64,000 nt of DNA, from contig NZ_WPCA01000001.1 of NCBI RefSeq assembly GCF_009741825.1, positions 1-64,000 on the forward strand. Reading direction: 5' to 3'. The notes beneath the pieces are model-generated. The model was not told where the DNA came from. It did no database searches and saw only the letters and a program-made list of their open reading frames with translations. Shown in pieces: positions 7,123 to 33,030 of the stretch. Both the position numbers and the translations under genes were made by a program. Each line of letters opens with the position of its first letter. Positions within the stretch are counted from its first letter, which is position 1. Origin of the DNA: Halapricum sp. CBA1109. GTDB lineage: Archaea; Halobacteriota; Halobacteria; Halobacteriales; Haloarculaceae.

Positions 7123-8064
7123 ATGCCGATTCCGGAAACCAAATTTAACGACTGGAATAGTACCGGAGCTGACAAGGGATCGGCTGATGCACGGGACAAG
7201 ACTCGCCGTGCCCTGATGAGCGAACGCTCACCACTCGAACAAGCGGACGAAGATTACGAAGTCTATTTACAGGGCTCATATGCGAACACAACTCACACAC
7301 GGGGATCGAGCGACGTAGACGTCGTCGCGAAAATCACGTCTGCATGGCGCTCTGACCTTGAGGAGCTCAGTGAGGAAGCGGAAGAACGATACAACGAAGA
7401 CCACGATGACGCCGATTATGACCACCGTGATTTCTACGATGATGTGCTGACGGCACTCAGGATCAAGTTTGGCCGTTCAGCTGTTACTCTCGGTAATAAG
7501 GCAATCAAAATCGACAAGGAGCGGACATCACTACTTGATGTCGACGTTGATGTCGTCGCGTGCGGTGAATACCGTGTCTACCGGACTTATCCCCAAGGCG
7601 GCGATGAGGACGCGGAAATCGACAAGGGTATGCACTTTATGCCGCAGAGCGGCAACGATCGTGTAATCAACTTCCCTAAGATTCACCGCGAGAACGGACG
7701 GGAAATGCACTCGAACTACAAGGAAACTGTCCGTATATTCAAGAACGCACGCTATTACTACAACAATCATTTCGATACTCTCTGGACGATTGATGCCCAC
7801 TCGTACGGGATCGAGTGTCTCATCTACAACGTTCCAGAGAGTATCCTAAAGCGAACTAGTCGATCAGATCGGTTCGACGAAATCCTCACCCACCTAGAAG
7901 ATGCGGACTTCTCAAGCTTTGATCAGGTTTCTGAAATGGAATCTCTATTTGGCGGTAGCAGCACGCAGTGGAGTACTGACGAAGCAGATGAACTCATAAC
8001 CCGTCTCCGAGAAATGTGGGACGACTGGTACAGCAAACGGAAGAATGCACAACTTTTCCACTGA
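7123..8064 (+). CDS. CD-NTase (CBASS cyclic-oligonucleotide synthase), system A
   Basis: The protein has 313 residues. The nucleotidyltransferase signature is clear: LQGSYANTTHTRGSSDVDV with GS at 51-52 and metal-binding Asp64/Asp66, and the third Asp in the LLDVDVDVVA strand (139-143). It is followed by the helical C-terminal half typical of CD-NTases. On phage infection such enzymes make a cyclic di- or trinucleotide that activates the effector encoded next. Its end overlaps the effector start by 20 bp, so the two are translationally coupled. The absence of E1/E2/JAB or HORMA/TRIP13 genes makes this a minimal (type I) CBASS. The product nucleotide cannot be told from sequence alone. Confidence 0.88.
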   Translation: MPIPETKFNDWNSTGADKGSADARDKTRRALMSERSPLEQADEDYEVYLQGSYANTTHTRGSSDVDVVAKITSAWRSDLEELSEEAEERYNEDHDDADYDHRDFYDDVLTALRIKFGRSAVTLGNKAIKIDKERTSLLDVDVDVVACGEYRVYRTYPQGGDEDAEIDKGMHFMPQSGNDRVINFPKIHRENGREMHSNYKETVRIFKNARYYYNNHFDTLWTIDAHSYGIECLIYNVPESILKRTSRSDRFDEILTHLEDADFSSFDQVSEMESLFGGSSTQWSTDEADELITRLREMWDDWYSKRKNAQLFH

Positions 8065-8662
8065 CCAATCGAACCGCCATCAGCGATATATCTTAATCGG
8101 TATCGCTACTGCAGTGATTTTCCTTGGAGGGATCAGCGTTTTTGGTCCTATACCTGGACTTTCGATGGGCGTTGTCTCATCCGCACTCTACTTCGGTTTC
8201 ACGAAATATCTCTGGAAGTGGGAGTGGTTACACGATAAGGGATTGGTCGCTGTTCCGAACTTCAATGGTATATGGGAAAGACATCTGTACACTTCCGCCG
8301 ACGCGGACCCCATCTCTGATGAGCAGATTGTCGACAATGGGCGTCAGATTGAGAGACTGACAAAACAGGAAACCAGTATTGAGATTAAACAGACCTGGGA
8401 TCAGATACGTGTATCATTGGATGGGCCAGAATCACCCTCACATAGCCGAGCAGCGACGATCTTGGTCAAAGAAAAAGCCTGGCCGACACTCTCGTATAAT
8501 TACTGGAATGAGGGGAGTACCACCAACGAAGAGCTTGACCCACATTATGGGACTGCTATCTTAGAATACGATGAGCGCGAAGACAAACTCGAAGGAAAGT
8601 ACTACAACCGCCCTGATCAGCGGGGAACCCATGGGATACTGGAACTGTACAGAGTGAACTGA
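8045..8662 (+). CDS. cap15: Cap15-like CBASS effector (two TM helices + beta-barrel), system A
   Basis: The protein has 205 residues. Two transmembrane helices (about 14-32 and 37-57) are followed by a soluble domain opening with VPNFNGIWER, then ITKQTW-like and YNRPDQRGTHGILEL strands. This is the layout of Cap15, whose minimal eight-stranded beta-barrel binds the cyclic nucleotide and drives oligomerisation that disrupts the inner membrane. The start overlaps the CD-NTase gene. The same order of elements is found in the second copy at 8667-9314, which supports the assignment. In a haloarchaeon the target membrane would be of ether lipids, an unusual setting for this effector. Confidence 0.8.
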   Translation: MHNFSTDQSNRHQRYILIGIATAVIFLGGISVFGPIPGLSMGVVSSALYFGFTKYLWKWEWLHDKGLVAVPNFNGIWERHLYTSADADPISDEQIVDNGRQIERLTKQETSIEIKQTWDQIRVSLDGPESPSHSRAATILVKEKAWPTLSYNYWNEGSTTNEELDPHYGTAILEYDEREDKLEGKYYNRPDQRGTHGILELYRVN

Positions 8663-8674
8663 GTTTTCACTCTG
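8650..8674. terminator. Shared bidirectional hairpin covering both effector stop codons
   Basis: CAGAGTGAA (8650-8658) pairs perfectly with TTCACTCTG (8666-8674) across a seven-base loop. The stop codon of the rightward effector (8660-8662) and that of the leftward effector (8667-8669) both lie in this structure. It can act as a compact two-way terminator or mRNA 3' stabiliser for the two converging operons. Confidence 0.6.
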
Positions 8675-9314
8675 ATTTCACGAAGTACATTTCTCCGTAG
8701 TTCTCACGGCCAGGACCTGTGTAATAGAATCCCTCTAGTACTGTTTCATCAGAGTCTGATTTTAAAGCTAAGTCCGCGGTTCCGTAGTGTCTTGTCATCG
8801 AAGGCGCTGAATCTGGGTCTGGATCGTTCTCATACTGGTAGTTGAGGCTCGGCCAACGCCCATCTTCAGTCAGTACAGTTGCTCCAGTACTGTCTGACTC
8901 GGAATTGTCGGTCTCCAGGTGGATGCTAATTTTCCGCCATGTCTGAGTGATTCGTAGCGTCGCTGCGACCCGCTGCATTTCCGCGTTCGGGTCGTTCGAA
9001 GCGTGAAGTGCATCATCTGGAATGACACCCTCATAAGAGGTTTTCACATATCCCGTCCACTCGCCGTTGAAATCAGGAACTTTTGACGCTCCTGTTGCGC
9101 GGGCGATTCTTGTTTTCCAAATAAACCGACTAAACATCGCTGTAAGAAGGGTGAATCCCACTCCCCAGGAGATCGTTATGCCCGCGACTGCTGGTATGAC
9201 TGCGCTGAGCGTTGTTGAAAGCCACCCCACGGCAAGGGCAGCTGCATAGGCTCCGAATCCAAGAATACCGTATACAGTCGGCCTATTGTCGTTGTCTGTT
9301 GAGTACGTATGCAT
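8667..9314 (-). CDS. cap15: Cap15-like CBASS effector (two TM helices + beta-barrel), system B
   Basis: The protein has 215 residues. Two hydrophobic segments (about 14-38 and 40-62) end in the basic RFIWKTRIAR, followed by KVPDFNGEWTGYV and a beta-rich domain with ITQTWRKISIHLET and EGFYYTGPGRENYGEMY. The order and key words match system A (VP-[ND]-FNG-x-W; I-[KT]-QTW; LEG-[KF]-YY), but overall identity looks modest, so this is a diverged relative rather than a recent duplication. It is encoded five bases after its CD-NTase. Predicted role: membrane disruption after cyclic-nucleotide binding. Confidence 0.8.
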   Translation of the reverse strand: MHTYSTDNDNRPTVYGILGFGAYAAALAVGWLSTTLSAVIPAVAGITISWGVGFTLLTAMFSRFIWKTRIARATGASKVPDFNGEWTGYVKTSYEGVIPDDALHASNDPNAEMQRVAATLRITQTWRKISIHLETDNSESDSTGATVLTEDGRWPSLNYQYENDPDPDSAPSMTRHYGTADLALKSDSDETVLEGFYYTGPGRENYGEMYFVKSE

Positions 9315-9319
9315 CGCTA

Positions 9320-10216
9320 TTAATCCTCTTCATAGAGGCGTCTGGCCTCGGTGACGAATGTCCTAGCGTGTTCGACATCCCATTGGGTTGACTCGTCACC
9401 AAACAACGATTGCATCCCATGCTGTACAGTATAGTCCGGGAACTCTTCTGCGGCGTCGGCTTCGAGTTCGTCGAGAATTCCCTCGACTCGGTCGCGAATA
9501 TCCACCTTTGCGATTGTGGCAGTCTCGATGTTTGAGAGGAGACACTCGACGAAGTATGACGCGGCGTTTTCTTTCTCAATAGCGCCGTTCTCTGCGAGTG
9601 TATTCCTGAAGTTCTTGAAAATACGGATCGTTGGTTTGTAGTTCCCGTTTGTATATTCGTTGTACCTGGTGCCCATGATTCGATGACGGCGTGGGAAATT
9701 GATGATCTTCGTCCCGTCTGGAGTCCAGAATACAATTCCTTTCATGTGGTTTCCTGGCTGGCGTGACCAAAATCGTCGATACTGGAGACAGGGAACGACA
9801 TCGGCTCCAAGGGGCAACTCATCACTGTCCACTTCGATTGCCTTCTCACCACGTTCGACGTTGCGTGTCCCGTATTGGGCTTGGAGGGTTCGATACACGC
9901 CTTCGGCATGTTCCTCGAACATCTGCTGTGGATTTCGATCAGGGGCATGGCTGGCGGCATGATCAGGGACGTGAGAAAAATCTGCATGGAAGGTGTCTGT
10001 CCGAATAACAAGAATGTCTACGTCACCGGAATTGTATACCATGGTCGTGTTCCGGTACGAGCCTTGGAGGAGGGTAGCGAACTCTAACCCTTCACTGACG
10101 CCCTGGAGGCCACCTTCTTCCAGATCATCCCGGAGTTCGCGGTTGGTATCTCGGGCTTCTTCCTGATTCGCAGTTTCCGAATGTGTCCACCGGTTCAGTT
10201 TTGCACGAGAAATCAT
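9320..10216 (-). CDS. CD-NTase (CBASS cyclic-oligonucleotide synthase), system B
   Basis: The protein has 298 residues. The catalytic core is LLQGSYRNTTMVYNSGDVDI with GS at 52-53 and Asp65/Asp67, and the third Asp in PLGADVVPCL (139). Conserved features shared with system A include KIINFPRRH (versus RVINFPKIH), YKPTIRIFKN (versus YKETVRIFKN), SLFG..STQW near the end, and the helical C-terminus. It is followed by its Cap15-like effector in a compact operon. The differing NTase loops suggest that the two systems may make or sense different nucleotides, which would avoid cross-talk. Confidence 0.87.
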   Translation of the reverse strand: MISRAKLNRWTHSETANQEEARDTNRELRDDLEEGGLQGVSEGLEFATLLQGSYRNTTMVYNSGDVDILVIRTDTFHADFSHVPDHAASHAPDRNPQQMFEEHAEGVYRTLQAQYGTRNVERGEKAIEVDSDELPLGADVVPCLQYRRFWSRQPGNHMKGIVFWTPDGTKIINFPRRHRIMGTRYNEYTNGNYKPTIRIFKNFRNTLAENGAIEKENAASYFVECLLSNIETATIAKVDIRDRVEGILDELEADAAEEFPDYTVQHGMQSLFGDESTQWDVEHARTFVTEARRLYEED

Positions 10217-10283: not shown

Positions 10284-11750
10284 CTACGTCAAGCTATCAA
10301 GTTCCCCGTCCTCTAAGGAAAGGAATTCTATAACGTAGTCTTTCAGGGTTTGGTTCTCTGCAGCGAAGAACTCCACAGTCCGGAACACCTCTTTGCTAAA
10401 CCGTTCATAGAGCTCGAATATATCTGGGTCGAGAAGCTCAGGGTTAGATGACACCAGTTCCTTTTGTGTAGAAGTCTGGATACGATAGGCAAACGAGAGA
10501 TGGGTATTCAGGCCCAATAAAAACACCGACAAACTAGACTGTCGACCCTGCTCGGAATGGGCAACTGTCTCTGCACTCACGGTCGAGAAGTTAAATTTCA
10601 GGAAATGGTTATTATCCAATAGCAACTCATCTGGCTGTATTTGGTGTTTGCTGTTCACAAGACCGATGATGCGAATTAGACAAGGAATACACTCGCCACA
10701 GTTATAGGGGTGTCCGACATCGTCCTTTTTTTGTGACAGCTCACGCGGATGGGGACACGTTCGAGTGAAAAGGATGTTTTCTTTGTTTGAGATAGAGTTG
10801 ACGACATCTTTCTTCGTGTAGCCAAGGAAAGGATTAGTAATTTCTATGTTACGGTCCGGAAATAGTTCCTCGAAAACCCGGTTCAAGCTCTTGACGAACA
10901 GTGGGTGGACTGTGCGAGTCGTCGTCCAGCCCGATTCCAGCGAGGAGAACCGTGAGAGGATACCATTCTCGGGAACATAGATATCATCGACATCGAGGGC
11001 TACCGCGACAGCGGCGGCGAAAGCGAAGTACATGAATGACCGAGTGAACTGCGTATTTTCGTATGCAGAGAACCCCTCATCGACACCTATTGAGGTCAGA
11101 TTACCATCGAAGAGATGGTCAAAATTCCGCACTAGATGGCCGACGTTTCGGCCGTGATCAACGCTGACAAAATGTGGGTTGTGCCCTTCATCGGTCAAGT
11201 GAGACTGACCACCCAAGCTATCTAATCCGCCAGAAAAGAGCGCGACAGAATCTGCCCCAGGTATCTGAGCACAGTGCTCACTATCGTCCCCATCATTAGA
11301 CTGAGTCTCGTCGATAGCATCGATGAATCGAAATTGAAAATTGTCACGTGAGATGAAGCTAATAGCATGATTCAATTCAGACTCCAATGATTGCCATCTC
11401 TCCACGTCAGCAACAGGGTACAAGATCTGAATCTGACGTGATTTCAGCATTTCTTCCTCATCTTCCTTCGCACCAGTGGGCCCTCGTTTCACCAAACGGT
11501 CCGCAGCATACGTACCGAGTGCAACCTCAATCAACGCCGTGACTGTTTGAGGAGGGCTCCGTCCGAAAAGATCATTGAGAACGTTCTTTTTATACTTGAT
11601 AAGACGACCACCTTCCGTTTCAGCTTCGGTTCGATAATCGTCGACGACAATGGTGTAGTCGGAGTCTGCTTCACTAAGACTCGATCCAGTCCCAGACTTA
11701 ATCAGGAATCGCTTAGTTCCCTTCAAGATCTTCGTCCTCCCACGCCACAA
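10284..11750 (-). CDS. QueC/QatC-like ATP-PPi-loop protein
   Basis: The protein has 488 residues, about twice the size of housekeeping QueC. The PP-loop LFSGGLDSLGG has SGGLDS at 163-168. The zinc-binding cluster is TCPHP (Cys322) with NCGECIPCL (Cys341, 344, 347), the QueC arrangement. An N-terminal ~150 residues and a C-terminal ~130 residues extend the core, as in QatC of the Qat anti-phage system and the QueC-like protein of type IV CBASS. QueC converts carboxy-deazaguanine to preQ0; the defence versions are proposed to act on a partner protein. The chosen ATG overlaps the preceding gene by 38 bp. It is the last gene of the 12.55-10.28 kb operon. Function here is inferred. Confidence 0.78.
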   Translation of the reverse strand: MWRGRTKILKGTKRFLIKSGTGSSLSEADSDYTIVVDDYRTEAETEGGRLIKYKKNVLNDLFGRSPPQTVTALIEVALGTYAADRLVKRGPTGAKEDEEEMLKSRQIQILYPVADVERWQSLESELNHAISFISRDNFQFRFIDAIDETQSNDGDDSEHCAQIPGADSVALFSGGLDSLGGQSHLTDEGHNPHFVSVDHGRNVGHLVRNFDHLFDGNLTSIGVDEGFSAYENTQFTRSFMYFAFAAAVAVALDVDDIYVPENGILSRFSSLESGWTTTRTVHPLFVKSLNRVFEELFPDRNIEITNPFLGYTKKDVVNSISNKENILFTRTCPHPRELSQKKDDVGHPYNCGECIPCLIRIIGLVNSKHQIQPDELLLDNNHFLKFNFSTVSAETVAHSEQGRQSSLSVFLLGLNTHLSFAYRIQTSTQKELVSSNPELLDPDIFELYERFSKEVFRTVEFFAAENQTLKDYVIEFLSLEDGELDSLT

Positions 11751-12123
11751 TCATCTCGTGCATAGTATTCCGAATCATTTCTTCTACATCTTCGTGCTCT
11801 AGTAGTTCTACATCGGCATCTTCGAAAATTGGAGCTAGTTCCGGCTGGTCCTGTATTCTTTCGACCAGTTCATCCGCCCGGTTGGCACATTGATCTCGTA
11901 GTTGCTCCTCAAATTTTTCTAACTCTTGGTCCGTCTCGACGTTCTGGCTGAAATGGAGTTGGAGGGCGGAGTCTGATTCAGGATCATTTGTAGCTGCCTC
12001 AATCTCCTCGTTAAGCAGTTGAAACAGATACTCCCGAAAATATACTCGGAAGAATCCCTCAACGCCATGCGCCTCTACGAATTCGTCAATGTTATTCTGA
12101 ATCTCGGTGTCGTTCAAGAGCAT
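11713..12123 (-). CDS. Small acidic helical protein of the QueC-like operon
   Basis: The protein has 136 residues, is strongly acidic and predicted mostly helical (for example LRDQCANRADELVERIQDQ and LEHEDVEEMIRNTMHEM). It overlaps both neighbours (32 bp with the upstream gene, 38 bp with the QueC-like gene), so it is part of the same unit and probably works in a complex with them. No family is recognised, no TM segment, no nuclease motif. It may be an adaptor or a lineage-specific counterpart of other Qat subunits; this is speculation. Confidence 0.65.
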   Translation of the reverse strand: MLLNDTEIQNNIDEFVEAHGVEGFFRVYFREYLFQLLNEEIEAATNDPESDSALQLHFSQNVETDQELEKFEEQLRDQCANRADELVERIQDQPELAPIFEDADVELLEHEDVEEMIRNTMHEMIVAWEDEDLEGN

Positions 12124-12553
12124 CAGCTCCTTCCGTCATAATGTCACCCATCGCACTTTCCATTGCTCGTTCTGCGGACCCTGAGAAGGTCCGGTCGGTT
12201 CCTTGAGATCCTTCTGCAAGGCCTCGGGTGGCGGCCTCCTTTGAAGCTTGTTCAACGACAGCGTCAGAGGCACCAGCTGCAACGACTTCCTTTGCCACAG
12301 AGGTGCCGACCTCCTTAGTAGCGGACTCAACACCGTTCTGGTGACTTTTGATAATGAATTCAGAGCCATATCGGACCGCTAAATATGCTGGAACCTTTGC
12401 TGCGCCGTTCGGTTGGGCAGCCAGAATCATCTTGAAATAGATTTCACTCGCCTTGGCAGCATCTTTATCACTCGCCGCATCAGCTAAATCACGTTTCGCA
12501 TCCTTATAATCAGCATTGGATGCCCCAGATTGATTCCGGGTTGCTGTTCCCAT
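12092..12553 (-). CDS. QatB-like small protein with exposed Met-Gly-Thr N-terminus
   Basis: The start at 12553 (MGTATRNQSGAS) is preferred over an ATG five codons upstream (12568), because a TATA-like TTATAAATA about 25 bp upstream would give a leaderless message at 12553. After Met removal the chain would begin with Gly. The low-complexity Gly/Ser/Thr N-terminus recalls QatB of Qat systems (from memory MGTS...). The 153-residue remainder is Ala-rich and helical with small-residue repeats (EVGTSVAKEVVAAGASDAVV), possibly membrane-active. As first gene before a QatC/QueC-like enzyme it is a good candidate for the enzyme's protein substrate. No direct evidence of modification. Confidence 0.6.
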   Translation of the reverse strand: MGTATRNQSGASNADYKDAKRDLADAASDKDAAKASEIYFKMILAAQPNGAAKVPAYLAVRYGSEFIIKSHQNGVESATKEVGTSVAKEVVAAGASDAVVEQASKEAATRGLAEGSQGTDRTFSGSAERAMESAMGDIMTEGADALERHRDSE

Positions 12554-12568
12554 ATCATCATATTGCAA

Positions 12569-12621
12569 GTCTGTATTTATAATGCTAATTGTTACAAAGG
12601 TCTAACAAATCTTTGTAACAA
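12569..12621 (-). promoter_or_regulatory. Promoter and perfect inverted-repeat operator of the QueC-like operon
   Basis: An AT-rich TATA element (about 12572-12582) is preceded by TTGTTACAAAG (12589-12599) and its exact reverse complement CTTTGTAACAA (12611-12621), separated by 11 bp. Arms of 11 bp one to two helical turns upstream of the TATA box are typical of a dimeric regulator site. No regulator gene lies in the operon itself. Confidence 0.55.
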
Positions 12622-13199: not shown

Positions 13200-15203
13200 C
13201 TATTCGATCCGCATATTCATGTACCCGCCTTTAACTACTTCCTCGAACCGTTGGGACTCAACGACTGCTTCGAGCTCAGTTTCGGTTCTCAAAACCTTCT
13301 CTGCCGCAATTTCTGTTTGTGACGGCCAATCTGGGGTTCCAGCATCAGGAACTGAGACAAGACGAATAACGTACGGAATATCCCCGTCACGAACGAATGC
13401 CTTGGCTTGACGGTACTCGTTTGTTGTGAGCCGGAAATTAAACCGCGGGGTGGTTCCGTTCACGGCTTTGACCTCGACGGGAACGAACTGGAGGCCAAAA
13501 TCATCGGTCCCCTCGTCATCAGAAAGCGGTCCAAGGGGATCGATGACGTCGAATCCAGGCCCCCGTTCCATTGTGACATTTACGAGTCGAACAAGCGGAA
13601 ATTCAACAAATGAGTCCTCATCTACTTCTGCTCGCCAGTTGCTTATCGTACTGTGATTCAACGCTTCTGAGTCTCCCAAGAGTGGGAGGAGATCAGACGA
13701 CCAAACGTTCTCGACGTGCCACTTGTATGACCGCTCCTGCTGATCAGAATGTAACCGTTTGAACCGGGAGCGGAACTGGCGAATGTCTCCACCAGGATGC
13801 TCGTCAAGCCACGTAGCGATTCGATCGAGGACACCAGCCATAACGTACGCTTCTGCTTGCTGGCCACGCCCGCGATACTGTGTACTCCCACCGCCGCTGC
13901 CGCCACCAGTCGAGACGGAGAGAGAACTATCAGTACCAGCTACCTCAACGCCTTCAGGAACTATGGAGCCATCAGAACTCCCGCCCGCGATTTCGCCATC
14001 AGTATCGATCGCTGTTGCGAGATCTGCAAACGCTCGCTCTTGATGGTCCTTAGCCCCTCGATCAGTTTCCGATTCCGGAATCGTCCCCTCCTCAACGTAG
14101 GTGGTAACGAGACTGTCCCAGTCGAATTCGACTTCCGGTAGTTCACTGTCGATGTCCTCGCAGAGGGATTCAAGGAGAGTCTGAATTCGGTCGTTGATGC
14201 TGACGTGCGCAACGAACGGCAGGCAACCGAGCGTTGTCGCATACGATTCGGGGACTGAATCCGACCATTCGGGAGACGCAGATGAGTGGAGTTCGCGGAG
14301 TCGCTCGCTCCAAGTGTTGAGTTCAGTGAGTTCTGCGGGATCGGTCTGTTCCCAGAGTTCGGCGACGGTTCGAAGGCGCACGTACGCTTGTCTGGCATCG
14401 CTATTGAACGGCGGTCGGTCGAGTGTCCCGCGGTGAGCATCGAGCCAATTGATGACAACAGCTACGGTTGCTTCATCAACGTCCTGTGCTTCCAATTCGC
14501 GAACCCAATAGGTAGCCGTCTCGGAGAAGAGGCCCGCGGCGATGAACTGCAACTTGTCCGGAAGTGTTGCGTGGACACCGTCGATCCATTCTCGGATCGT
14601 CGGAGCGAGGTCTGTGAGGTCGTGGTCAACATTGGCGTCAGGATTCGGTTGTTCGCCCGTTGCGCACCACTCCCGGATGAAGCCGATCGTATCGGAGTCT
14701 GCATCTTCGAGTGCATCGAGAAGCGGACCAGCATCAACTGGAGTACGATCGAGCCGACCTAGCAGATCGTTGAGTGCCCTGACATCGCGTTCAAACGACT
14801 GAAGCGCGTTCGATCCGAGCACCTGTTTGACCGCCTCGATTGGGAACGTCCGCTTCTTCCAGCGTGATTCGAGTTCATCGACCTCGACGTCGCTGCGCAG
14901 TGCCTCCCGGAAGGTAGCAACTTTCGTCGGTCGTTCGACAAGCAGGGCGATCCCCATCGAAAGCCCTTGCAACGAGAGTGAATCACTGGCTTCGGCGGCG
15001 TTCAGGAGGAGGGCCTCATTGCCGTCGTCAGTCCTATAGAGTGCAGATGCGGGATCTGACAGTTGTCGAAGCACATCGTCGGGGAACGCTTCTACGACAG
15101 CGATATTTGCTGCAGCAGTTGCGAGATTTTCTGCGGTATCTACGATTTCTTCCTCATCGGATCGTTCCGTCGAAGCAACGAGAAGATCCTGCCGTTCCGT
15201 CAA
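13200..15203 (-). CDS. DUF3883 (NOV-domain) protein, partner of sacsin-like ATPase
   Basis: The protein has 667 residues. The first ~400 are helical and acidic without a recognised family; a low-complexity Ser/Gly linker follows (about 440-455). The C-terminal ~200 residues have the DUF3883/NOV layout: GRGQQAEAYVMAGVL, then FVPVEVKAVNG with E-x-K (about 577-579), then FRLTTNEYRQAKAF and YVIRLVSV. This domain resembles a PD-(D/E)XK nuclease fold and is common in prokaryotic defence genes. It follows the sacsin-like ATPase gene by 41 bp, and in many relatives the two parts form one chain, so they probably form one complex. Confidence 0.7.
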   Translation of the reverse strand: MTERQDLLVASTERSDEEEIVDTAENLATAAANIAVVEAFPDDVLRQLSDPASALYRTDDGNEALLLNAAEASDSLSLQGLSMGIALLVERPTKVATFREALRSDVEVDELESRWKKRTFPIEAVKQVLGSNALQSFERDVRALNDLLGRLDRTPVDAGPLLDALEDADSDTIGFIREWCATGEQPNPDANVDHDLTDLAPTIREWIDGVHATLPDKLQFIAAGLFSETATYWVRELEAQDVDEATVAVVINWLDAHRGTLDRPPFNSDARQAYVRLRTVAELWEQTDPAELTELNTWSERLRELHSSASPEWSDSVPESYATTLGCLPFVAHVSINDRIQTLLESLCEDIDSELPEVEFDWDSLVTTYVEEGTIPESETDRGAKDHQERAFADLATAIDTDGEIAGGSSDGSIVPEGVEVAGTDSSLSVSTGGGSGGGSTQYRGRGQQAEAYVMAGVLDRIATWLDEHPGGDIRQFRSRFKRLHSDQQERSYKWHVENVWSSDLLPLLGDSEALNHSTISNWRAEVDEDSFVEFPLVRLVNVTMERGPGFDVIDPLGPLSDDEGTDDFGLQFVPVEVKAVNGTTPRFNFRLTTNEYRQAKAFVRDGDIPYVIRLVSVPDAGTPDWPSQTEIAAEKVLRTETELEAVVESQRFEEVVKGGYMNMRIE

Positions 15204-15244
15204 GGCCTGTTGGAACTCGGCGACGCGGCCGGTGTGCTGTTCAG

Positions 15245-18200
15245 TTACGACGCTAAGTCATCATCCTCCAGATCGAGTACGAGCTTCGATGCCTGGAGTT
15301 GGTCAACTCCGAGTGCTGTCGCCAGCCGAACGAACGGCCCACTTCTCGGTCGAGGAAGAATATAGTAGTCGTTTTCTTCGGCAGTCTGCAGTTCCCACGG
15401 TTTGGGAGACTGATCCTGATAGTAGCGGATCTGATCTGTATTTTCCTGAATCCACTCGATAGATGCCGTCAGCCACTGGTCGCTGTCACGCAGCGGGAGG
15501 TGCGTCAAGGCACCCCAGTCCAGTTCATCGCGTTGATCCGCTGGATCGTCTGGGAACTCTCGAACTAACGGTTGTAAGAGTTGAGTATACGCTTGATTCC
15601 AGTCGTTGATGCGTTCACCTGGAATCCAGAGACGGGCTGGACCATCCTCCGGCAGTGGTCCATCGACGAGAACAGATTGCAACTGCTGTAGCCGCCTCGT
15701 CGCACCGGTTGGCCCGAGGTCGCTCACAGGTTGAACGTCAAGCGTTTCGAGCACCTCTTCGGAGAATCCGCTATCCGCCTCAACGTGTGGAAACATCCGA
15801 GCAGCCTGTGCGCCACGGCTACTTTCTTTCCGGACAGCGAAGCGAAGCTGCGAGGTATACTCAACCCACCGTTCGGCGAGCTCATCGTCGACATCAACAA
15901 CAGGACCCCAGATATCGAGACTACGAAGCTGCCAGTTCAACAGACTCGGAACTGACGAGGTCCACGAGCGTCGCTTGTGGCCGTTGTTACACGACCAGCC
16001 GGTCTGCAAGAGCGTCGAAACGAATGCATCACCGTGTCGGCGGAGAACCTCTCGAACCGCATGAGCGCGCTGAGAAAGACGTTCAGCGTCATCTATCCAG
16101 ACCCACGAGGCCAGGTTTACTTGAGAGAGTTCACCATCTGTCTTGACGTTACATTTCGGGGAATGATCGGCACTAACCTGCGGATGATGCTCTACACCGG
16201 TGAGAAGTGATACATAGTCTGCGTTCTCCGAGAGAGTCGTCTGTAATCTCTGGACGATATCAGGCACAGAATCGATGAAATCGTCACTACCCCACTCTGT
16301 CGGGTTCCAATGGTGGTCCCGACGCATCGAAGGGTGGTCGTCGCCGTACATCCAGAGAACGCTGACGCCCGGCAACGAACCCGTACCAAGGAGAGATAAA
16401 GCGCGGACGAAATCAGCGTCCGAAACGTCCCGCTTGATCTGATCACGAAAGGTCGCCCATGTCTCTGTGTCCGGGGACGGCCACGTCGGGGCAGGATACT
16501 GATCTGCAGGGACGTCAGTCCAATCCGCGGGCACCTCGGCGTCATCGTCTGCCTGTTCTTCTTCATCGGATCTGAGTGCTCGCTCGCGAACTGACTGCCA
16601 CTCATCCGAGAGAACGGTTTCTGCAATCGGTTGCGGCTGCGTTCGATGCAGTTGGAGATCACAGGTGCGAAGCTGTACCCGTCGACGGAGATTCGCTCGC
16701 TGAACGCCTTCCTGTTGTGTGATCGCGGTTTCGAGGTATGAGAGCGGGAAGAACTCGCCCTCCCCCATTTGTAGGTCGTCCGATTCGGCTCCGATACGAT
16801 CAACAAGCGCAGTTAGAAACGCGAAATCGATTGGTTCGACTGTTTCGTGTCGCCCATCAGCGAACGTGTCGAGGAGCGAGCGGACAAAGCTCGGAATGCC
16901 TTCATACGCACGAAGCCCCCAGACTCGGCCTGCCGTACTCAGAACGTGATGAACCGTGGCGTCCTCCTGAATAACGTCATCGAGGAAATAGACCGTCATA
17001 TTAGAGGTTCGCGGTGGCGTCGGCGGGCGCTCGATATCACGAGTGGTCGATTCGATATCCCAGATCACCGACCGAACGCGACGCTGTGTATGCTGCCCAC
17101 CTGTCGGAGTTTGACGTCGTTCGATTGTGACGAGCGCAAGTTCTTCATCAGGATCGACCTCGCGAATTCGACACGGTAAGAGATAGATGCCGTCGAATCT
17201 ATCGCCAAGGTCAGTGAGTGTCTCATCAAGGAATTCATCGCCTTCCGTTGCAGCTGCCAGCAGAGTTACCGTGCCTCGAAGGAGGGTTCTGGCAGCAGTC
17301 GCGGGAACGATCTGGGCCGGCGGATCGTCATCTTGCATCGCAAGCCCGGTTGCGAGTTGTTCAACCCACTCCTCGAGTAGTGCCTTCGAGGCAGTCTGCC
17401 CGTCCTCTATCGCGAGAAGCATTTGAATACGCTCGCGCCACATTGAAGGGATTTCGAGGACAGCGGTCAGTGCTTTCTGAGTGAGTAGCGGTGATGACTC
17501 TGGAGAGGTCTCTACTGAGCGCTCTAGGTGGTCGACAAGCGTTCGGTATGCGAGCTGGCCTTCGAGGACAGAGCTATCCCAGTGGAGCAGCGTATTTTCT
17601 GGTTGCCGTGGCCCATCAACGGTTGGGATACATTCGGTCGCCCCAAGTCGTTCGAACAGTTCAAGGCGGAACCAGTCGAACAGTTCGTCGTTCGACGTTG
17701 GTTCCGATATTTCGTCGACATCTGGAATGGACGGTAAAAGACACCACGGAAGATGCGAGCTATAACTGGGCGCATCCTGGTCGGTTGCAGCAATAGCAAC
17801 TTCCTCACCAACTAACTCAATGAGATCCAGCCCCTCCTGAAGCACGCTCCAGTTCGCCGCCAAGTTGTTCGAACTGAGGTCCTTACGGTTCGTTTCGACT
17901 CGGAAGCGACCGTGAAGACAGAACGGAAGCTCGACCGCGCTCGTTCCTTCGATCGGATAGAATAGATAGAGAGGGTACGAGGCAGTTGGGACTGAGCCAC
18001 CGTCTGCAGCCTTGTTCACGAGTAATGTAGTATGGTGTTGACGTGCGTTCGTGAATTGGAATTGATCGAAGCGATGGGTGGTTTCGGTATCGTCCGGCGA
18101 CTGTATACGGACATCAACTTCGCTGTGTGCGAGACCCGGGGTCGCGACATTCGGGCTTGAATCGCGTTGGATCTCCCACCGTTCTTTGCGCACGGTATCG

Positions 18201-19201
18201 CTGCCGCCATCAGTGGCACGCTCAAGCGTGAGTTCCTCAATACCACCGAGTTGAACGAGCGTTTCGGGCTGGAGCCCATCTTCGCTTGCTGTCGCAGAGA
18301 GATACTCCCAAATCCGTTGTGGCCGATCTTCAATCGATCCAGTATCTTCCTCCTCGGGGATCGAAGCGCCGATATCGGATAGTTGTGAGCGCCACTCAAA
18401 ATCCTCGTACCGGATGAACACTGCAGTACGGAACTGATCCTCGATCGAAGTGCCGGAGGAGCCAGTTAGTAGGTCACGAACACGAGAGCGGACTGGGTCG
18501 GAATCTGCCTCCGATCCGTTCATAGCCAACGGAACCGGGAAATTGAACAGCGGGAGTTTGGAGATTGAATCCTGAATCCCGCCTGTAAGCGGAATCGTCT
18601 CGTCTGGACTGCTGTTTGTCAGCAATTCCTGTAGAGTCGCATCATCGAGATCGTCGGTAAGATCCAAGATGTTGCTATCCTGGCCTAGCCGATTACGGAT
18701 AGCAGCGACGAGATATGCTCGACTCAATTGAACAGCAAGGATGTCGTCGGAAGACTGGTCCGGCCGAGTGAAGATCTCGAAAGCGTCACCCGTTGCGAGG
18801 ATGGATTTCAGGCCGACACCTTTGTGGCCGATAGATTGATCGTTATCTCCCTTTCCGGTCTCGCCGATCATCGTGACGGCATCTTCGACTTGTGGGTCAA
18901 AGAGATCGAATCGGCTGCCCGTATTAGCCACTAACACCCCTTCGTCGTAGACGCCAACGTAGACAAGGCCCTGCTCTGCATCCCCTTGCCAGATCGCATC
19001 TCGAGCATTCTGAAGTAGCTCGAGGATTTCTCGCCCTTCGTGCCCGCCAGCAATTTTCCTTTCGGCATTACCGATGATTACCTTGTCGCGGAGTGCATTC
19101 TGAGCGGCTTCTGCTGTATCTGCTTCTCGAACGTGGGATAGAAAATTGTCCCATCGATCTTGCCATCGGGTTCGCAATTCCTGCTCGGATAATACCGACA
19201 T
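15245..19201 (-). CDS. Sacsin-like GHKL ATPase, very large
   Basis: About 1318 residues from ATG at 19201 (chosen over 19219 because the conserved-looking sequence begins MSVLSEQELRTRW). A GHKL/HSP90-type ATPase domain is at the N-terminus: the N-box ELLQNARDA (61-69), ANTG (92-95) and GHKGVGLKS (125-133) match sacsin-repeat N-termini. The remaining >1000 residues are of unknown fold. Large sacsin-like ATPases paired with DUF3883 proteins occur in bacterial and archaeal defence islands and are candidate anti-phage sensors, but the mechanism is not established. It is transcribed away from the helicase at 19347, so the 145-bp gap holds divergent promoters. Confidence 0.75.
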   Translation of the reverse strand: MSVLSEQELRTRWQDRWDNFLSHVREADTAEAAQNALRDKVIIGNAERKIAGGHEGREILELLQNARDAIWQGDAEQGLVYVGVYDEGVLVANTGSRFDLFDPQVEDAVTMIGETGKGDNDQSIGHKGVGLKSILATGDAFEIFTRPDQSSDDILAVQLSRAYLVAAIRNRLGQDSNILDLTDDLDDATLQELLTNSSPDETIPLTGGIQDSISKLPLFNFPVPLAMNGSEADSDPVRSRVRDLLTGSSGTSIEDQFRTAVFIRYEDFEWRSQLSDIGASIPEEEDTGSIEDRPQRIWEYLSATASEDGLQPETLVQLGGIEELTLERATDGGSDTVRKERWEIQRDSSPNVATPGLAHSEVDVRIQSPDDTETTHRFDQFQFTNARQHHTTLLVNKAADGGSVPTASYPLYLFYPIEGTSAVELPFCLHGRFRVETNRKDLSSNNLAANWSVLQEGLDLIELVGEEVAIAATDQDAPSYSSHLPWCLLPSIPDVDEISEPTSNDELFDWFRLELFERLGATECIPTVDGPRQPENTLLHWDSSVLEGQLAYRTLVDHLERSVETSPESSPLLTQKALTAVLEIPSMWRERIQMLLAIEDGQTASKALLEEWVEQLATGLAMQDDDPPAQIVPATAARTLLRGTVTLLAAATEGDEFLDETLTDLGDRFDGIYLLPCRIREVDPDEELALVTIERRQTPTGGQHTQRRVRSVIWDIESTTRDIERPPTPPRTSNMTVYFLDDVIQEDATVHHVLSTAGRVWGLRAYEGIPSFVRSLLDTFADGRHETVEPIDFAFLTALVDRIGAESDDLQMGEGEFFPLSYLETAITQQEGVQRANLRRRVQLRTCDLQLHRTQPQPIAETVLSDEWQSVRERALRSDEEEQADDDAEVPADWTDVPADQYPAPTWPSPDTETWATFRDQIKRDVSDADFVRALSLLGTGSLPGVSVLWMYGDDHPSMRRDHHWNPTEWGSDDFIDSVPDIVQRLQTTLSENADYVSLLTGVEHHPQVSADHSPKCNVKTDGELSQVNLASWVWIDDAERLSQRAHAVREVLRRHGDAFVSTLLQTGWSCNNGHKRRSWTSSVPSLLNWQLRSLDIWGPVVDVDDELAERWVEYTSQLRFAVRKESSRGAQAARMFPHVEADSGFSEEVLETLDVQPVSDLGPTGATRRLQQLQSVLVDGPLPEDGPARLWIPGERINDWNQAYTQLLQPLVREFPDDPADQRDELDWGALTHLPLRDSDQWLTASIEWIQENTDQIRYYQDQSPKPWELQTAEENDYYILPRPRSGPFVRLATALGVDQLQASKLVLDLEDDDLAS

Positions 19202-19346
19202 TAATAGAAAAGGCAACATAGCGGATTCTTATCAAAGTTCTCAGGACAATCGACGTCGTTACAACTGTTGCACAACCGAGATTACGCTCTAATATGCTTC
19301 ACCCCATAACAGCAAATCATATGTGTTTCTTCACATACTGATAGCT

Positions 19347-22459: not shown

Positions 22460-25400
22460 TTATTCAAAGGGAGTTAACCAGCGTTGAATGGTTTCTGTCG
22501 CCATCTTTTCATTTAGAACACTTACATCAAGTGACAACCGTTGTTTAGACTCAGAGGAGGCATACATCGACACTAGCGGATCTGACTGACCGGATTCGTT
22601 CACTTCGATCTCGATTCCTGATTCGCTCAACCAACCATCAAACCGAACTAATTCTCCGATATCCTCCCCGCGCTGATTCTGGCGTAGCACATCCAGAAGG
22701 TACTCGAATAACTCCTGCTGTGGGAGCGGTATCACGACGGACGGATACCATTCGAGCACTTTCGGGTCGAAAGAGATCAGTACCTCGTCGTCATCAGTAT
22801 ACATCGCCTGGACAGTATCTTCTGGAGGATCTGTCGGGACTGGCGGATTAGCATCGTCCGGGACCGACATACGGTAGAGTTTCTTGTACGGCGCATCTTC
22901 GTCGTCGGTCAGCTGTCGATCCAGCATTTCGAATCGCCATCCCTGATCCCGCAGGACTTGGCTCTGAGTGAAGAGCCGCTTTACGACGTCTGGAGTTACC
23001 ATCGGCTCGAAGCGGCGATCGGGGTACCCGACCAATTCGATATCTGGGTGAGCTGTCGTCCAACCATCGAGTTTCGACGACTCGATTATCTCCGCTTCAG
23101 TTGTTTCCTTGCCATCCTCTGCGAGACCGACACGTCTCGATAGTTCTGCTGCTTCGGCAGCGCGACTTTCGGCCGTGTTGGCGATGTCTTCGCTGTCCTG
23201 ATCCGACTCACCCATCGCGACTCGTTCAACGTCCCCCTCTAATCCTTCCAATATCGGACGGAGCGGTCCGACGGCCTGCTCGAATAGGTTGATTCGTTCA
23301 CGAAGCCGGTCGTAGATGTCCTCTTCGACGGTATCAGCGTAGACGTAGTTCCAGATGAGTACGTCGTCGTTCACCTGCCCGATGCGGTCGATCCGGCCGA
23401 TTCGCTGTTCGACCCGCATCGGGTTCCACGGCAGGTCGTAGTTGATCATCGCATCGCAAGTCTGCAGGTTGAGTCCCTCGCTAGCGGAATCAGTACAGAT
23501 GAGAACCGAGAGATCTCCATTCGGATCGGTGAACTCTCGTTTGACCCGCTCTTTGCTCGTTCCTCGCCACTCACCGGTGTCTTCCTCGTATATTTCTCCG
23601 CCCCGGCCGGAGTAGGTCCCGACCGCAGGATGGCTGAGACATACCTTGTTCTTGATCGCGTCAAGCGTGTCCGTATACTGCGTGAAGATGATGACTGTGT
23701 CTCGTGCCAAACCGCTCAGCGTTTGCAGATCCTGGACCAACTGTTCGAGCTTCGGATCCTCGGGGACGTCGTATAGCTGGGCGATGAAATCCTCGAGTTC
23801 GCTCAGTTCGTACTGTCGGATGCGCTCGCCGGCGTCCCCGGTCGCCCCGATTTCGTCGACCGACACGTCGTACTCACGATCGAGCACCTCTTCTCGATCG
23901 GCGAGTGCGCCCGTTCGCAGGTCACTGTCCGAGATTCCGGAGACATCACGCAATTCCGATTTGAGGTTCTCTCGACGTCGCTGAAGGGACTGTTCGATGG
24001 CATGCAGGCTGCTCGTCAGTCGCTGGCGATATGTCGTCATCACGAAGCCGACAGCGGTCTGCTCTTTCCCTTCAAGAAGCTGCTTGGAGCGGTTGTAGAC
24101 GTCGGAGATGTACGTCTCGACGCGGTCGTACAACGGTTCTGCGTCGCCGAGTTCGACCTCTCGGACCTCGATCTCTCGGCGTGGTACGCGCTGGTCGAGC
24201 CGACCAGTTTCCGCGAACTTTCGTAGCGTCTCCCGGGTGTTGCGGAACACGCGAGACTGAACAGGTGTCGTCTGACTACCGAGCTCGAGCAAAAACCGCA
24301 GGCTTTCACCGGAGAGTTGCGAGAACCGATCTTCCCAGTCGCGTGCGCCGAGCCGACCGACGCCAAGGACGCGCTTGAGCCGACGGCGTTCGCTCAGCGA
24401 CAGCCCGGTTTCGTCAATCGCCTCCTCTACTCGATCTGCGACGTCGTCGTGTTTCCGGACGAACGCCTGAATCATCCCTGCCCACGTCCGAAGAGTGAGC
24501 ATCCCTTCGTAGGGTTCGACGTTCCACTTGGACGAGAGACCTGGGAGGAGTACTTCGACAGTTTTGGAGTCAGACCCGGCTATCTCGTCCAGTAGCTCAG
24601 GGAGATCTTGTTGGACATCGAAGTAGGTCTCGAAGTTCTCACGATCGTTCCAGCCTTCGGGGAGCTCACAGAGCCGAAGAAGGTCGTACAGCTCTGTGAT
24701 TTCCAGCTGCATCGGTGTCGCCGTGAGAACGTACATACTCGTGGTATCCTTCCGGAGGTCCGTGAGCAGGTCGTAGAGATTCGTCCCCTTACGTCCGTGA
24801 TGGGCTTCGTCTACGAGTGTGAGATCCCAGTCGGCATCGACCGCTCCTTGACCCGGAGTGAGAGCGCCGCTCTCGCTGTCGCTGCCTCTGTGGACTGTCG
24901 GGGAGAACAGCTCCATATTGCCCTCACGCGCGCCGTGTGCCACGAGGCCAAGACGACCGTCGGGCCGTCCCGCTCGGAGACGAACTCACCAATGTGTGAG
25001 TTCTCCCAGTCGTCTGCCGGGTCATACTCGGATAGTGCGTGTTCTCTCCCGTACGCATCTCGAAGGATGCGCTGAGCACCGGCATAATCGTACGAGTGCG
25101 TATTGATATTGAACTTCTCCAGTAGCTCTTCTTGCCACTGCGGCTGGACGGTCGCGGGGACGAGCAAGAGCGCGTCACGTACTTCTCCGATGGTGAGCAG
25201 TCGAGAGATCGTCAGCCCTGCCTCGATAGTCTTCCCGAGTCCGACTTCGTCACAGAACAGGAGGCTTTCGGGGTAGATGCTTGCCGCCGTATCGGCGGCA
25301 ACGCGCTGGTGAGGCCACGGCGAGATTGAGCTAATATCCTCAGCCATATGCAGCGCACCGGGGAGACGGCCGTAGTCGGAGACGATCTGTGCGACTGCCG

Positions 25401-26092
25401 CTTCCGAGGCCTGTGGGTCCTTCGTGTTCTGGAGGCGTTCGACATGCTCCTGCAGTTCCTCGTCGGATTCGGGTTGCCAATCGAGGATGTCCTGTTCGAT
25501 CGCCTCGTCGATGTCCGTGACTTCGACGTCTTCGTGCTCCTCTTTCCAAAGGCGCTCGAAGGTCTCGATGTCCTCTTCGACGTACTCCCCCTCGACGTCG
25601 TCCCACGATCGATGGACTTTGAACCGCTCGTAGTTGCGGTACCAGGCGTTGTACGTCTCGTTGATGCTACCCTCGAATGAGATGCTGTAGCCGTCGGCGT
25701 CGGTCGCGATACCGAGCTTCGGATGGAAGATCCCGCCGTTGGTACTGTTTCGAGGTTCACCGATCTTCAGCTGAAGCCGTCCCTCGTCCATCATCTGCGC
25801 GATGAGCGCGAGACGGGACTCGCCTTCCTCTGAGAGGGGACTATCCGTGAGCTGGTTTGTTCTCCCGACCGAGTTTCTTCGAGGCGATGATCCGGATTTC
25901 ACCGTCCGTCTCGAACGCGGATTCAATCCCTTGGAGGGCGTCAGCGAGGTTCTGGAGGCTCAGGTAGCCAGCGAGACGATCGTACTGAACCGCTTCCGAG
26001 AGCATCGGCTGGTAGAACGCGCCGACCAGAGTCTCTTCACCCCGGAAGTTGCTCTCGTACACTCGTTTCCAGTGATGATCTCGGAAAGACAT
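22460..26092 (-). pseudogene. PLD-SNF2 helicase (DrmD-like), two apparent frameshifts
   Basis: Three overlapping frames read as one protein of about 1210 residues. N-terminus from 26092 (MSFRDHHWKRVYESNF): a phospholipase D-like region with GIFHPKLGIA and GSIN. Then an SNF2 ATPase with CDEVGLGKTIEAG (Walker A), LVDEAHH, LTATPMQ and the C-terminal lobe ending in RVEQRIGRIDRIGQ. Frame break 1 is at an AAA near 25856-25858 and break 2 at a CG repeat near 24927-24933; removing one A and one CG restores the ORF. It resembles helicases of DISARM-type and related restriction systems, which translocate along DNA. As read, no full-length protein is made. Its start lies 15 bp from the methyltransferase stop, so it is the last gene of the array. 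Confidence 0.8.
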
Positions 26093-26106
26093 GGTCAGAT
26101 GAGGAG

Positions 26107-28960: not shown

Positions 28961-28962
28961 TT

Positions 28963-29601
28963 TCAAATATGTCCTGCTAATAGTTGACGAAGAGCTGTGA
29001 CGCCGTTCTGACTTGATGGTGATCGACACTTCGCGTGCCAGTAATAACACTCCTCAAGACTCATCCGGTCAAGACTGTCTGCCACAGTCGTGAGTTTCTC
29101 GTACTTCCGGAGCTCTTTCAGCGCAAGGAAAGCGATCGTGAGCCGCACGCCATCGCTTTCCGACAGCACTGCAGATCCCTCACCACGAGTGACCGTTGCA
29201 GGATCGACGCCTGCGTCAGCCAGTACCGACTTCACGAGTCGGTGAACGGCCTGCTGGCGTTTCCCACGAAGCGTCGTAACTTTCAACGCGCACCACTCGT
29301 TCCAGTCCCAACTGTTCGGGGTGCGTTCGGACGGCGACCCGACGTCGACGAAGCTCAGCCGTCCGTCTGCGTCCTCATCGACATCGGGAAGTGCGTCCAC
29401 GATCGAGATTCGTGAGAGGGTGCGGTTACTGTTTGCCCGCTGGAGGCGCTTCTGCCGGCCGTTCGCGAGATCATCGGGAATGAACTCGTATAGCGTCAAT
29501 CCGGCATCGTCTCCGAGTCGCCGCGTCAGAGCGAACGTGGGACGACCGCCATGCATACTGCTCCCGTAGGCAAACGACTCCGCTTCCGACTCGATGCTCA
29601 T
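28963..29601 (-). CDS. DUF7680-like small protein of the methyltransferase array
   Basis: The protein has 212 residues and its start overlaps the DUF499 gene stop (ATGA, 29598-29601); the methyltransferase starts two bases after its end. No catalytic motif is recognised; it has a mixed fold with Ser/Asp-rich turns and a C-terminal helical part (VRLTIAFLALKELRKYEK). Proteins of this size regularly sit between DUF499 and DUF1156 genes in haloarchaeal arrays, so it is probably an accessory subunit of the restriction complex. The family name is given from memory of that context and should be treated as tentative. Confidence 0.6.
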   Translation of the reverse strand: MSIESEAESFAYGSSMHGGRPTFALTRRLGDDAGLTLYEFIPDDLANGRQKRLQRANSNRTLSRISIVDALPDVDEDADGRLSFVDVGSPSERTPNSWDWNEWCALKVTTLRGKRQQAVHRLVKSVLADAGVDPATVTRGEGSAVLSESDGVRLTIAFLALKELRKYEKLTTVADSLDRMSLEECYYWHAKCRSPSSQNGVTALRQLLAGHI

Positions 29602-32600: not shown

Positions 32601-32891
32601 TCCACCACCGAAGACGGTATCGAGTGACAGGAAGCCATTTTCACCGCTGTATTCGTCCGTCTTCTTCCCGACGTATCGTTTCGCCAGAAGGGTGATCAGA
32701 TCCTGAAGACCGTCCGTTGCGTACGTCTTGGTAAAGAATGTCTCAGGATCTGCGTAGATATCTGGCGCACTATCTGGATTAAAGACGACACCAGAGAGTT
32801 TTGCTGCGAATTGGTTTTCCGATAATGTACCCTCCAACACATCGTCGTGTGGGGTACAGGTTTCGAAGAGTGAGGGGACGGAAGTTGCCAT
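29598..32891 (-). CDS. DUF499 P-loop ATPase (BrxC/PglY-like)
   Basis: About 1097 residues from ATG at 32891 (MATSVPSLFETCTPHDDVLEG), chosen over an upstream ATG nine codons earlier. DUF499 features: an early FGGGKTHS Walker A (about 94-101), DPGLVLIDEVAQYLEQA (Walker B) and VVLSVAATAFED. It has a long helical middle, an Asp/Glu-rich linker (about 880-910) and a beta-rich C-terminal domain. Such ATPases are related to BrxC/PglY of BREX and occur with DUF1156 methyltransferases. They are thought to be the regulatory or DNA-engaging motor of the system. It heads the tight part of the operon. Confidence 0.82.
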   Translation of the reverse strand: MATSVPSLFETCTPHDDVLEGTLSENQFAAKLSGVVFNPDSAPDIYADPETFFTKTYATDGLQDLITLLAKRYVGKKTDEYSGENGFLSLDTVFGGGKTHSQIAAYHFSREPTAVDDLSEFITDDEISSAFADIQDDLTVETAVFEGGHVSAMDARCNKDDPSAPSTQTMWGELAYQLGGADGYALFSDYDADRVAPGESDIEELFELLDDPGLVLIDEVAQYLEQAAAVAVEESTLADQTNSFLWSLMRATQNSDDVTVVLSVAATAFEDKAQQVQELIDDLDAISERTERSVTPTEDDEVAEVLKHRLFKSIDESAATQVADGYQSFYRDYETDLTDRVTKAEFHEQLERTYPFHPTLIELLAQEIDTLPNFQRTRGALKLVSRAVHHVWSNQSANEGRNFIRAFDMHPSDEYVWSTLLDLFGQIEQDLRTASKSDVFTNDGKAACQYEDENWTPMGHPPIATHLGTTILWKSIVSGGNRGRGLSRRELWEMILEPSVELDHYRDALKNLSETGSSPETEAFFLYETENGLLRFKGEPKISKLITNEAQQIEDGVARNRLEQTIRGALGGGEFDTIYDPQAPYEVPDEYDTVRLCVMGFSAVTVSSDQDEPPELLQTLATTTGSSPGSEKKRVYRNNVVFLAAGEQEIEGALDHARRVKAMERILNGQAWETELNSAQRDDLDERLQETSALLGESVRQAYRHLYYPGTGGLKNEVIDSVNENDDLHDVVFENLDSLDRLITRNEGALGTAWFTNRIWQSDPDSMTTLDIRKLVAKRTDVRILLDPKPIRETVRSVTTSDTTDYVFWDGTSGRGYCSEEDTASTETGERPLVDAEEMSTALSMSDVLISDDHVVFADSEALLEAHDLTFPALDEDEENETEIEDDDETTDDDDDDLGGTAIDEPPKRSELSFTASTDSPSAISGAFSAVNGDIDQQKMRLRDNHDVSSGDIDVVIDTIEIELEGDQVWERAWFISDKIKDLDRIGEATKVVFEYVAESADESISVFEAGYEGTAAEFAQHFGTNHIPESFISRGGEAEGEAVLVTEAGSLDDNSRENTLGVLQEALEGLGGINNIELVVTGTVKERTDEPEEVTQ

Positions 32892-33030
32892 ATGCTGATG
32901 AGTCCTGTCCCTGCTCATGTAATTGTTTGTGTCTCACCTGTATCAACAGGACGATAGTCCGTACTGTCTTTGAGGCAATCAACGCTCCAGAAATACCCTC
33001 TGTACCTAATCCACAATCGGGATCGGCTAG

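What the first reader, a model, noticed from the sequence alone, without database searches (positions are those of the whole stretch)
10284..12621. Compact QueC-like operon with a Met-Gly-Thr small protein: possible minimal Qat-like system
Seen: three overlapping genes; a large QueC-like enzyme with PP-loop and Cys4 site, and a first gene starting MGTATR with a leaderless promoter. Known: QatC of Qat and the QueC-like protein of type IV CBASS are defence versions of QueC, and QatB-type partners begin Met-Gly. Inference: the enzyme may modify the N-terminal Gly of the small protein. The QatA ATPase and QatD TatD nuclease are missing and an unfamiliar 136-residue protein is present, so this could be an undescribed variant.
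Basis: partly seen in the sequence, partly recalled or inferred. Interest (0 to 1): 0.82.

Follow-up and report, generated by a model that had tools for sequence, protein, structure and literature searches.

The report
Archaeal minimal QatBC with split QatB
A three-gene cassette in salt-loving archaea is most likely a stripped-down form of the bacterial virus-defence system Qat, keeping only its core enzyme (QatC) and its putative target protein (QatB), with the target split into two genes; it has not been tested experimentally.

Summary
Three overlapping, co-directional genes (window 10284-12553, minus strand) encode a 153-aa protein starting Met-Gly-Thr, a 136-aa acidic helical protein and a large QueC-family enzyme. 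The enzyme is QatC-type, not the metabolic QueC: best profile and PDB matches are QatC, and it keeps QatC's Thr-x-Thr in place of QueC's Tyr/Asp. Canonical QueC and QueE sit elsewhere in the genome. The unit is real and mobile: complete in 12 of 392 sampled Halobacteria, always small gene next to qatC-like gene, often on plasmids, with no qatA or qatD nearby. A cassette of exactly promoter plus three genes is shared at about 83-86% between unrelated sites. Diverged three-gene versions occur in other archaea of the same phylum. The 'unfamiliar' 136-aa protein is probably not a new component: the two small proteins, joined in gene order, align co-linearly with bacterial QatB (hhalign score 50.4, prob. 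91%; swapped 27.9; shuffles at most 37). So this looks like a natural QatBC-only Qat system with QatB split in two. N-terminal Gly modification is inferred by analogy. The neighbouring CBASS genes are not part of the unit. New variant of a known kind; the fold search did not confirm the QatB split.

The parts
12574..12582 (-). TATA-type promoter element (TTATAAATA), about 25 nt upstream of the gene A ATG
   Evidence: Block AATTAG(A/C/T)ATTATAATACA conserved in 8 loci whose further upstream DNA is mostly unrelated; the shared cassette ends at 12590
12092..12553 (-). Gene A: 153-aa protein MGTATR..., proposed N-terminal half of a split QatB carrying the modifiable Gly2 tail
   Evidence: MG invariant in 13 sequences including methanogen-class homologues; aligns to the N-terminal part of QatB when joined to gene B; dN/dS about 0.08-0.13
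11713..12123 (-). Gene B: 136-aa acidic, all-helical protein, proposed C-terminal half of a split QatB (QatC-docking domain)
   Evidence: Conserved next to gene A; aligns to QatB residues about 160-270; AlphaFold2 pLDDT 73.8, all helical; dN/dS 0.03-0.05
10284..11726 (-). Gene C: QatC-type QueC-family enzyme (480 aa from TTG 11726; ORF opens at TTG 11750, 488 aa)
   Evidence: PADLOC QatC 5e-41; NCBIfam QatC 9e-45, below cut-off; PDB QatC 9zee/9vlk; QatC active-site signature
12589..12621 (.). Perfect 11-bp inverted repeat TTGTTACAAAG-N11-CTTTGTAACAA at the edge of the cassette; operator or insertion boundary, unknown
   Evidence: Found in the window copy only; coincides with the end of similarity to other copies at 12590

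Best explanation
The three genes form a self-contained antiviral cassette that is the archaeal, minimal form of Qat: QatC plus QatB, with QatB split into two translationally coupled polypeptides (gene A = flexible Met-Gly tail and first helices; gene B = C-terminal helical domain that docks on QatC), and without QatA or QatD. Proposed working: methionine aminopeptidase exposes Gly2 of protein A; proteins A and B assemble on QatC; QatC, using ATP at its PP-loop, activates a carboxylate substrate and joins it to the Gly2 amine, as Cap9 does with 7-carboxy-7-deazaguanine in type IV CBASS; the modified AB-C complex then restricts virus growth. Shown here by sequence: gene content, co-conservation, mobility, QatC-type active site, absence of QatA/D, co-linear similarity of A+B to QatB. 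Inferred: that A and B form one QatB-like unit, the modification, its chemistry and the antiviral effect.
For: QatC identity. QatC-type active site, with T278-R279-T280 (488-aa numbering) where QueC and Cap9 have Tyr/Asp, plus ENG, HP, NPFxxxTK and Cys4: motifs as in PMC13279940 and PMC13329287. Every gene A match in 392 Halobacteria genomes (13 matches, 12 genomes) lies beside a QatC-like gene. The three-gene order also occurs in G645, G896 and G694, same phylum, other classes. Cassette boundaries are the promoter and the end of gene C. No QatD match and no convincing QatA match within the fetched flanks, while positive controls score below 1e-90. A+B against QatB: 50.4, prob. 90.7%, haloarchaea only; 44.5 with methanogen-class copies; swapped 27.9/32.1; reversed 25.6; query block shuffles max 37.0 of 100; target block shuffles max 31.7 of 150; QatA, QatC, QatD decoys at most 19.1. 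Metabolic QueC and QueE are elsewhere in the genome. In bacteria QatBC alone defends against some phages and QatB Gly2 is essential (PMC13279940). Defence-island setting.
Against: Neither small protein alone matches any QatB model (PADLOC, NCBIfam, E up to 1; the QatB control matched). A alone and B alone give weak profile scores (23.6 and 27.6). Haloarchaeal and methanogen-class A and B families are not significantly similar to each other by profile. Foldseek of the gene B model found no QatB, though the model is of medium quality and the QatBC entries may be missing from that library. The gene A model failed (pLDDT 43). QatC here scores below the NCBIfam QatC cut-off. In other archaeal copies the PP-loop is SDGLDS or SEGLDS. 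No antiviral or biochemical data exist.
Confidence: 0.7

Rival explanations
1. Undescribed variant with a new component: protein A is the QatB-equivalent substrate, and protein B is an unrelated extra subunit (regulator, chaperone or effector) rather than half of QatB.
For: No family model recognises B; Foldseek finds no QatB; protein A alone already carries the Met-Gly tail and lies first in the operon.
Against: B joined behind A aligns co-linearly with the C-terminal domain of QatB far better than swapped, reversed or shuffled controls; B is the most constrained of the three proteins and a second small gene is present in all lineages.
Confidence: 0.2
2. A CBASS-linked ancillary module: the QatC-like enzyme acts on the neighbouring CD-NTase, as Cap9 does in type IV CBASS, and the unit is A-B-C-CD-NTase-Cap15.
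For: A CD-NTase (9320-10216) and Cap15 (8667-9314) follow on the same strand in the window, and the CD-NTase follows likewise in G068, G037 and G247.
Against: The CD-NTase begins MISRAK, not MGGS; ten of fourteen complete haloarchaeal cassettes and the copies in G645, G896 and G694 have no such CD-NTase nearby; in other genomes the shared block stops at the end of gene C; the enzyme is QatC- not Cap9-type.
Confidence: 0.05
3. A metabolic QueC paralogue (deazaguanine or other small-molecule chemistry) with two unrelated small proteins.
For: Pfam QueC match above the curated cut-off; some copies are annotated 7-cyano-7-deazaguanine synthase.
Against: Canonical QueC with QueE is elsewhere in the genome; QueC substrate residues are replaced by QatC ones; patchy, partly plasmid-borne distribution in a defence setting.
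Confidence: 0.03

Closest known systems
Qat (qatABCD) anti-phage system, core QatBC
   Same: QatC-family enzyme with N- and C-terminal extensions, Thr-x-Thr substrate motif, Zn Cys4; partner starts Met-Gly(Thr/Ser); partner gene directly upstream and overlapping
   Different: No QatA or QatD; QatB apparently split in two genes with a short tail (about 15 residues against 30-90); archaeal; not recognised by QatB models and below the NCBIfam QatC cut-off
Type IV CBASS Cap9 with its CD-NTase
   Same: Presumed reaction type: a QueC-family enzyme acting on an exposed N-terminal Gly
   Different: Enzyme has QatC-type residues and size; the substrate candidate is not a CD-NTase; Cap10 was not searched for specifically
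[quoted passage not shown]
   Same: Rossmann/PP-loop core and zinc site
   Different: About twice the size, different substrate motifs, no queD/queE neighbours; the genome has its own QueC

Membership tests
Qat (qatABCD) | QatC-family enzyme | tested here: met
   PADLOC QatC 5.1e-41; PDB QatC 9zee 4e-26; below the NCBIfam equivalog cut-off, 153 against 280 bits
Qat (qatABCD) | QatC active-site signature: SGGxDS, Thr-x-Thr in place of Tyr/Asp, ExG, HP, P(x)4TK, Zn Cys4 | tested here: met
   All present in the window protein; some archaeal relatives vary in the PP-loop and HP
Qat (qatABCD) | QatB partner with N-terminal MGTS-type motif | tested here: inconclusive
   MGTA/MGSA/MGSQ/MGGR present; QatB homology only as A+B concatenated profile, prob. 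81-91%, no single-protein model match
Qat (qatABCD) | QatA KAP-family ATPase in the operon | tested here: not met
   Only one marginal hit (8e-4, far end of L029) near any archaeal cassette; controls match below 1e-149
Qat (qatABCD) | QatD TatD nuclease in the operon | tested here: not met
   No match
Qat (qatABCD) | Protection against viruses that needs QatC catalysis and QatB Gly2 | not testable with these tools
   Needs plaque assays
Type IV CBASS | CD-NTase with N-terminal MGGS next to Cap9 | tested here: not met
   Neighbouring CD-NTase starts MISRAK and is absent at most loci
Canonical QueC | YxQxHxxE, VPxRN, YPDC motifs | tested here: not met
   Replaced by QatC-type residues

The most novel reading that the evidence does not exclude
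The split is functional, not just a broken gene: the Gly-bearing protein A is a separate small polypeptide that QatC modifies while protein B holds it on the enzyme, and modified A is then released as the effector or signal. That would make it a two-subunit substrate system not described for Qat or CBASS.
Probability: 0.15. Interest if true: 0.82.

Novelty: new variant of a known kind. Interest (0 to 1): 0.6.

Why it matters
Published work found in the laboratory that QatB and QatC alone can defend against some phages, but what QatC does chemically is unresolved (PMC13279940). Natural QatBC-only cassettes in archaea would show that the core travels by itself, extend this immunity to haloarchaea and other archaea, and offer a small (153-aa) separate substrate candidate on which an N-terminal modification could be read directly by mass spectrometry. 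The genome's own QueE suggests that the deazaguanine precursor is available.

Tried and rejected
Single-protein family scans of A and B (Pfam, PADLOC, NCBIfam): nothing credible. First hhalign of A or B alone against 14 QatB, and of A+B in a default alignment: weak. AlphaFold2 of A: unusable. Foldseek of B against PDB: no match. Viral contigs with A and C profiles: no relatives. Phage records: only two Listeria phage QatC-like hits. Cofunction with the adjacent CBASS considered and rejected on neighbourhood and N-terminus. TTG 12568 as start of A rejected on the promoter position. A membrane role for A considered: only the G645/G896 copies have a strongly hydrophobic stretch, the haloarchaeal ones do not.

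Full report
WHAT IS THERE. On the minus strand of a haloarchaeal contig, window 12553 to 10284 holds three overlapping genes: A (153 aa, MGTATRNQSGAS...), B (136 aa, net charge -33) and C (480-488 aa, QueC family). A TATA-type block about 25 nt upstream of the gene A ATG is conserved in eight loci while most of the DNA further upstream is not, which fits a leaderless transcript starting at that ATG. dN/dS among four copies is 0.08-0.13 (A), 0.03-0.05 (B) and 0.12-0.17 (C), so all three are maintained protein-coding genes.

GENE C IS QATC-TYPE. Pfam gives only QueC, 8.6e-7. PADLOC gives QatC 5.1e-41, NCBIfam QatC 9.2e-45 but below its 280-bit cut-off, and the PDB profile search gives the two solved QatC sequences, 9zee and 9vlk. 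In the alignment the window protein has SGGLDS, ENG, TTRTVHP, NPFLGYTKK and the four cysteines; canonical QueC lacks the Thr-x-Thr. PMC13279940 reports these two threonines as invariant in QatC, replacing the Tyr/Asp of QueC and Cap9, and essential for defence. The genome's own canonical QueC, 218.6 bits, and QueE lie together on another contig, so gene C is not the metabolic enzyme. In a tree of 37 sequences the archaeal three-gene QatC group is one side of a branch (weak, 78/86), apart from 17 bacterial qatABCD QatC (93/91).

THE THREE GENES TRAVEL TOGETHER. Gene C profiles hit 14 of 392 Halobacteria genomes, gene A profiles 12. All 13 gene A matches lie beside a QatC-like gene. The two genomes with gene C but not gene A have a contig end (G069) and a fragment (G271). 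With G094 there are 14 complete haloarchaeal loci in two clades about 30% identical in gene C. Several are on plasmids: Halolamina sp. CBA1230, Natrinema salinisoli, Halobiforma lacisalsi, Natrinema sp. DC36 twice. Against copies at unrelated sites the similarity runs from 10300/10307 to 12590, i.e. promoter to end of gene C. In G261 (N. salinisoli) gene B has one in-frame stop. Other archaea of the phylum carry the same order with diverged genes: G645 and G896 (MGSQNRS..., 150 aa; 94-96 aa; QatC 409-414 aa) and G694 (MGGRKSYS..., 148 aa; 95 aa; QatC 443 aa); I refer to these as methanogen-class copies from genome context, without names. A search with profiles of bacterial QatA and QatD over the fetched flanks finds no QatD and only one marginal QatA hit (8e-4, at the far end of L029), while controls score below 1e-90.

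THE TWO SMALL PROTEINS LOOK LIKE A SPLIT QATB. QatB is a helical protein of about 240-295 aa with an MGTS tail, encoded directly upstream of qatC. Neither A nor B matches a QatB model alone. Joined in gene order and compared as profiles with 15 bacterial QatB, they align co-linearly: haloarchaea only, score 50.4, P 1.2e-6, prob. 90.7%, columns 14-291 on 46-267; with the methanogen-class copies, 44.5, P 1.2e-5, prob. 81%. Swapped order gives 27.9 and 32.1, reversed 25.6, 100 query block shuffles reach 37.0 at most, 150 target block shuffles 31.7, and QatA, QatC and QatD profiles 19.1 at most. The methanogen-class pair alone shows the same order preference (27.2 against 18.2). I count this as good but not conclusive: the score depends on the alignment (an earlier default alignment gave 27.9), the haloarchaeal and methanogen-class families are not significantly alike to each other, the gene A structure prediction failed, and Foldseek with the gene B model (pLDDT 73.8) found no QatB.

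HOW IT MOST LIKELY WORKS. From PMC13279940: QatB and QatC form a 1:1 complex, suffice against some phages, and need QatB Gly2 and the QatC active site; Cap9 of type IV CBASS joins 7-carboxy-7-deazaguanine to an N-terminal Gly, but the QatC reaction is unresolved. By analogy, A (after Met removal) offers Gly2 to QatC, with B as the docking part. Steps shown: gene content, active-site signature, invariant Met-Gly. Steps inferred: A-B-C complex, modification, its chemistry, antiviral action.

CONTEXT. The cassette sits in a defence island: two convergent CD-NTase plus Cap15 pairs (7123-10216), a TmtA-like gene in two ORFs (13200-19219), and Hma-like genes (22460-32918). The CBASS genes next door are shared by only four of the fourteen haloarchaeal loci and the CD-NTase starts MISRAK, so I do not count them as part of the unit.

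NOVELTY. The held literature has no description of archaeal or split-QatB Qat; PMC13329287 calls the QatC cluster mainly bacterial, with qatA in 34% and qatD in 34% of neighbourhoods, so QatC outside full operons is known in outline. Two further E. coli QatBC structure papers cited in PMC13279940 were not read. I class this as a new variant of a known kind.

Noticed in passing
L083:142-5604 and L054:1-5673: Rhizobial plasmids (Mesorhizobium sp. AR10, Bradyrhizobium japonicum USDA 123) carry a large upstream protein (CHAT domain in Mesorhizobium) + glycine-rich MG-start protein + QatC-like + ASCH-domain gene, without TatD: possibly another Qat variant with a protease partner.
   Followed up: partly
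L056:3483-6623 and L082:3911-6474: Ensifer canadensis and Sinorhizobium fredii QatC-like genes followed by an XRE-type regulator gene; the Ensifer upstream protein starts MSDG, not MG; they have DYRN in place of Thr-x-Thr and branch with QueC in the tree.
   Followed up: no
L084:3066-5710: Leptospira noguchii plasmid has an MGHERLG... 260-aa protein overlapping a 621-aa QatC-like protein.
   Followed up: no
window 7123-10216: Two convergent minimal CBASS pairs (CD-NTase + Cap15), shared as one block with the cassette in G068 and G247.
   Followed up: partly
window 13200-15203 and 15245-19219: TmtA-like defence gene present as two ORFs matching the C- and N-terminal parts of one PADLOC model.
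   Followed up: no
window 22460-32918: Hma-like system: HmaA-like helicase, HmaB-like methylase in two ORFs (26107-27978, 27887-29050), HmaC-like ATPase.
   Followed up: no
L073:8687-9139, L078:776-1228: Gene A of the G645/G896 relatives has a strongly hydrophobic stretch (Kyte-Doolittle 19-window maximum about 2.4) absent from haloarchaeal copies.
   Followed up: partly
L006:7666-8595, L024:11132-12061, L026:11716, L027:11785, L028:11772: A TFB-like gene (zinc-ribbon start by eye) lies divergently upstream of the cassette in several genomes.
   Followed up: no
L008, L029-L033, L073 gene C: Second haloarchaeal clade has SDG(L/I)DS and the G645 relatives SEGLDS in place of the SGGxDS PP-loop.
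   Followed up: partly
window 12589-12621: Perfect 11-bp inverted repeat with 11-bp spacer exactly at the cassette edge, only in the window copy.
   Followed up: partly
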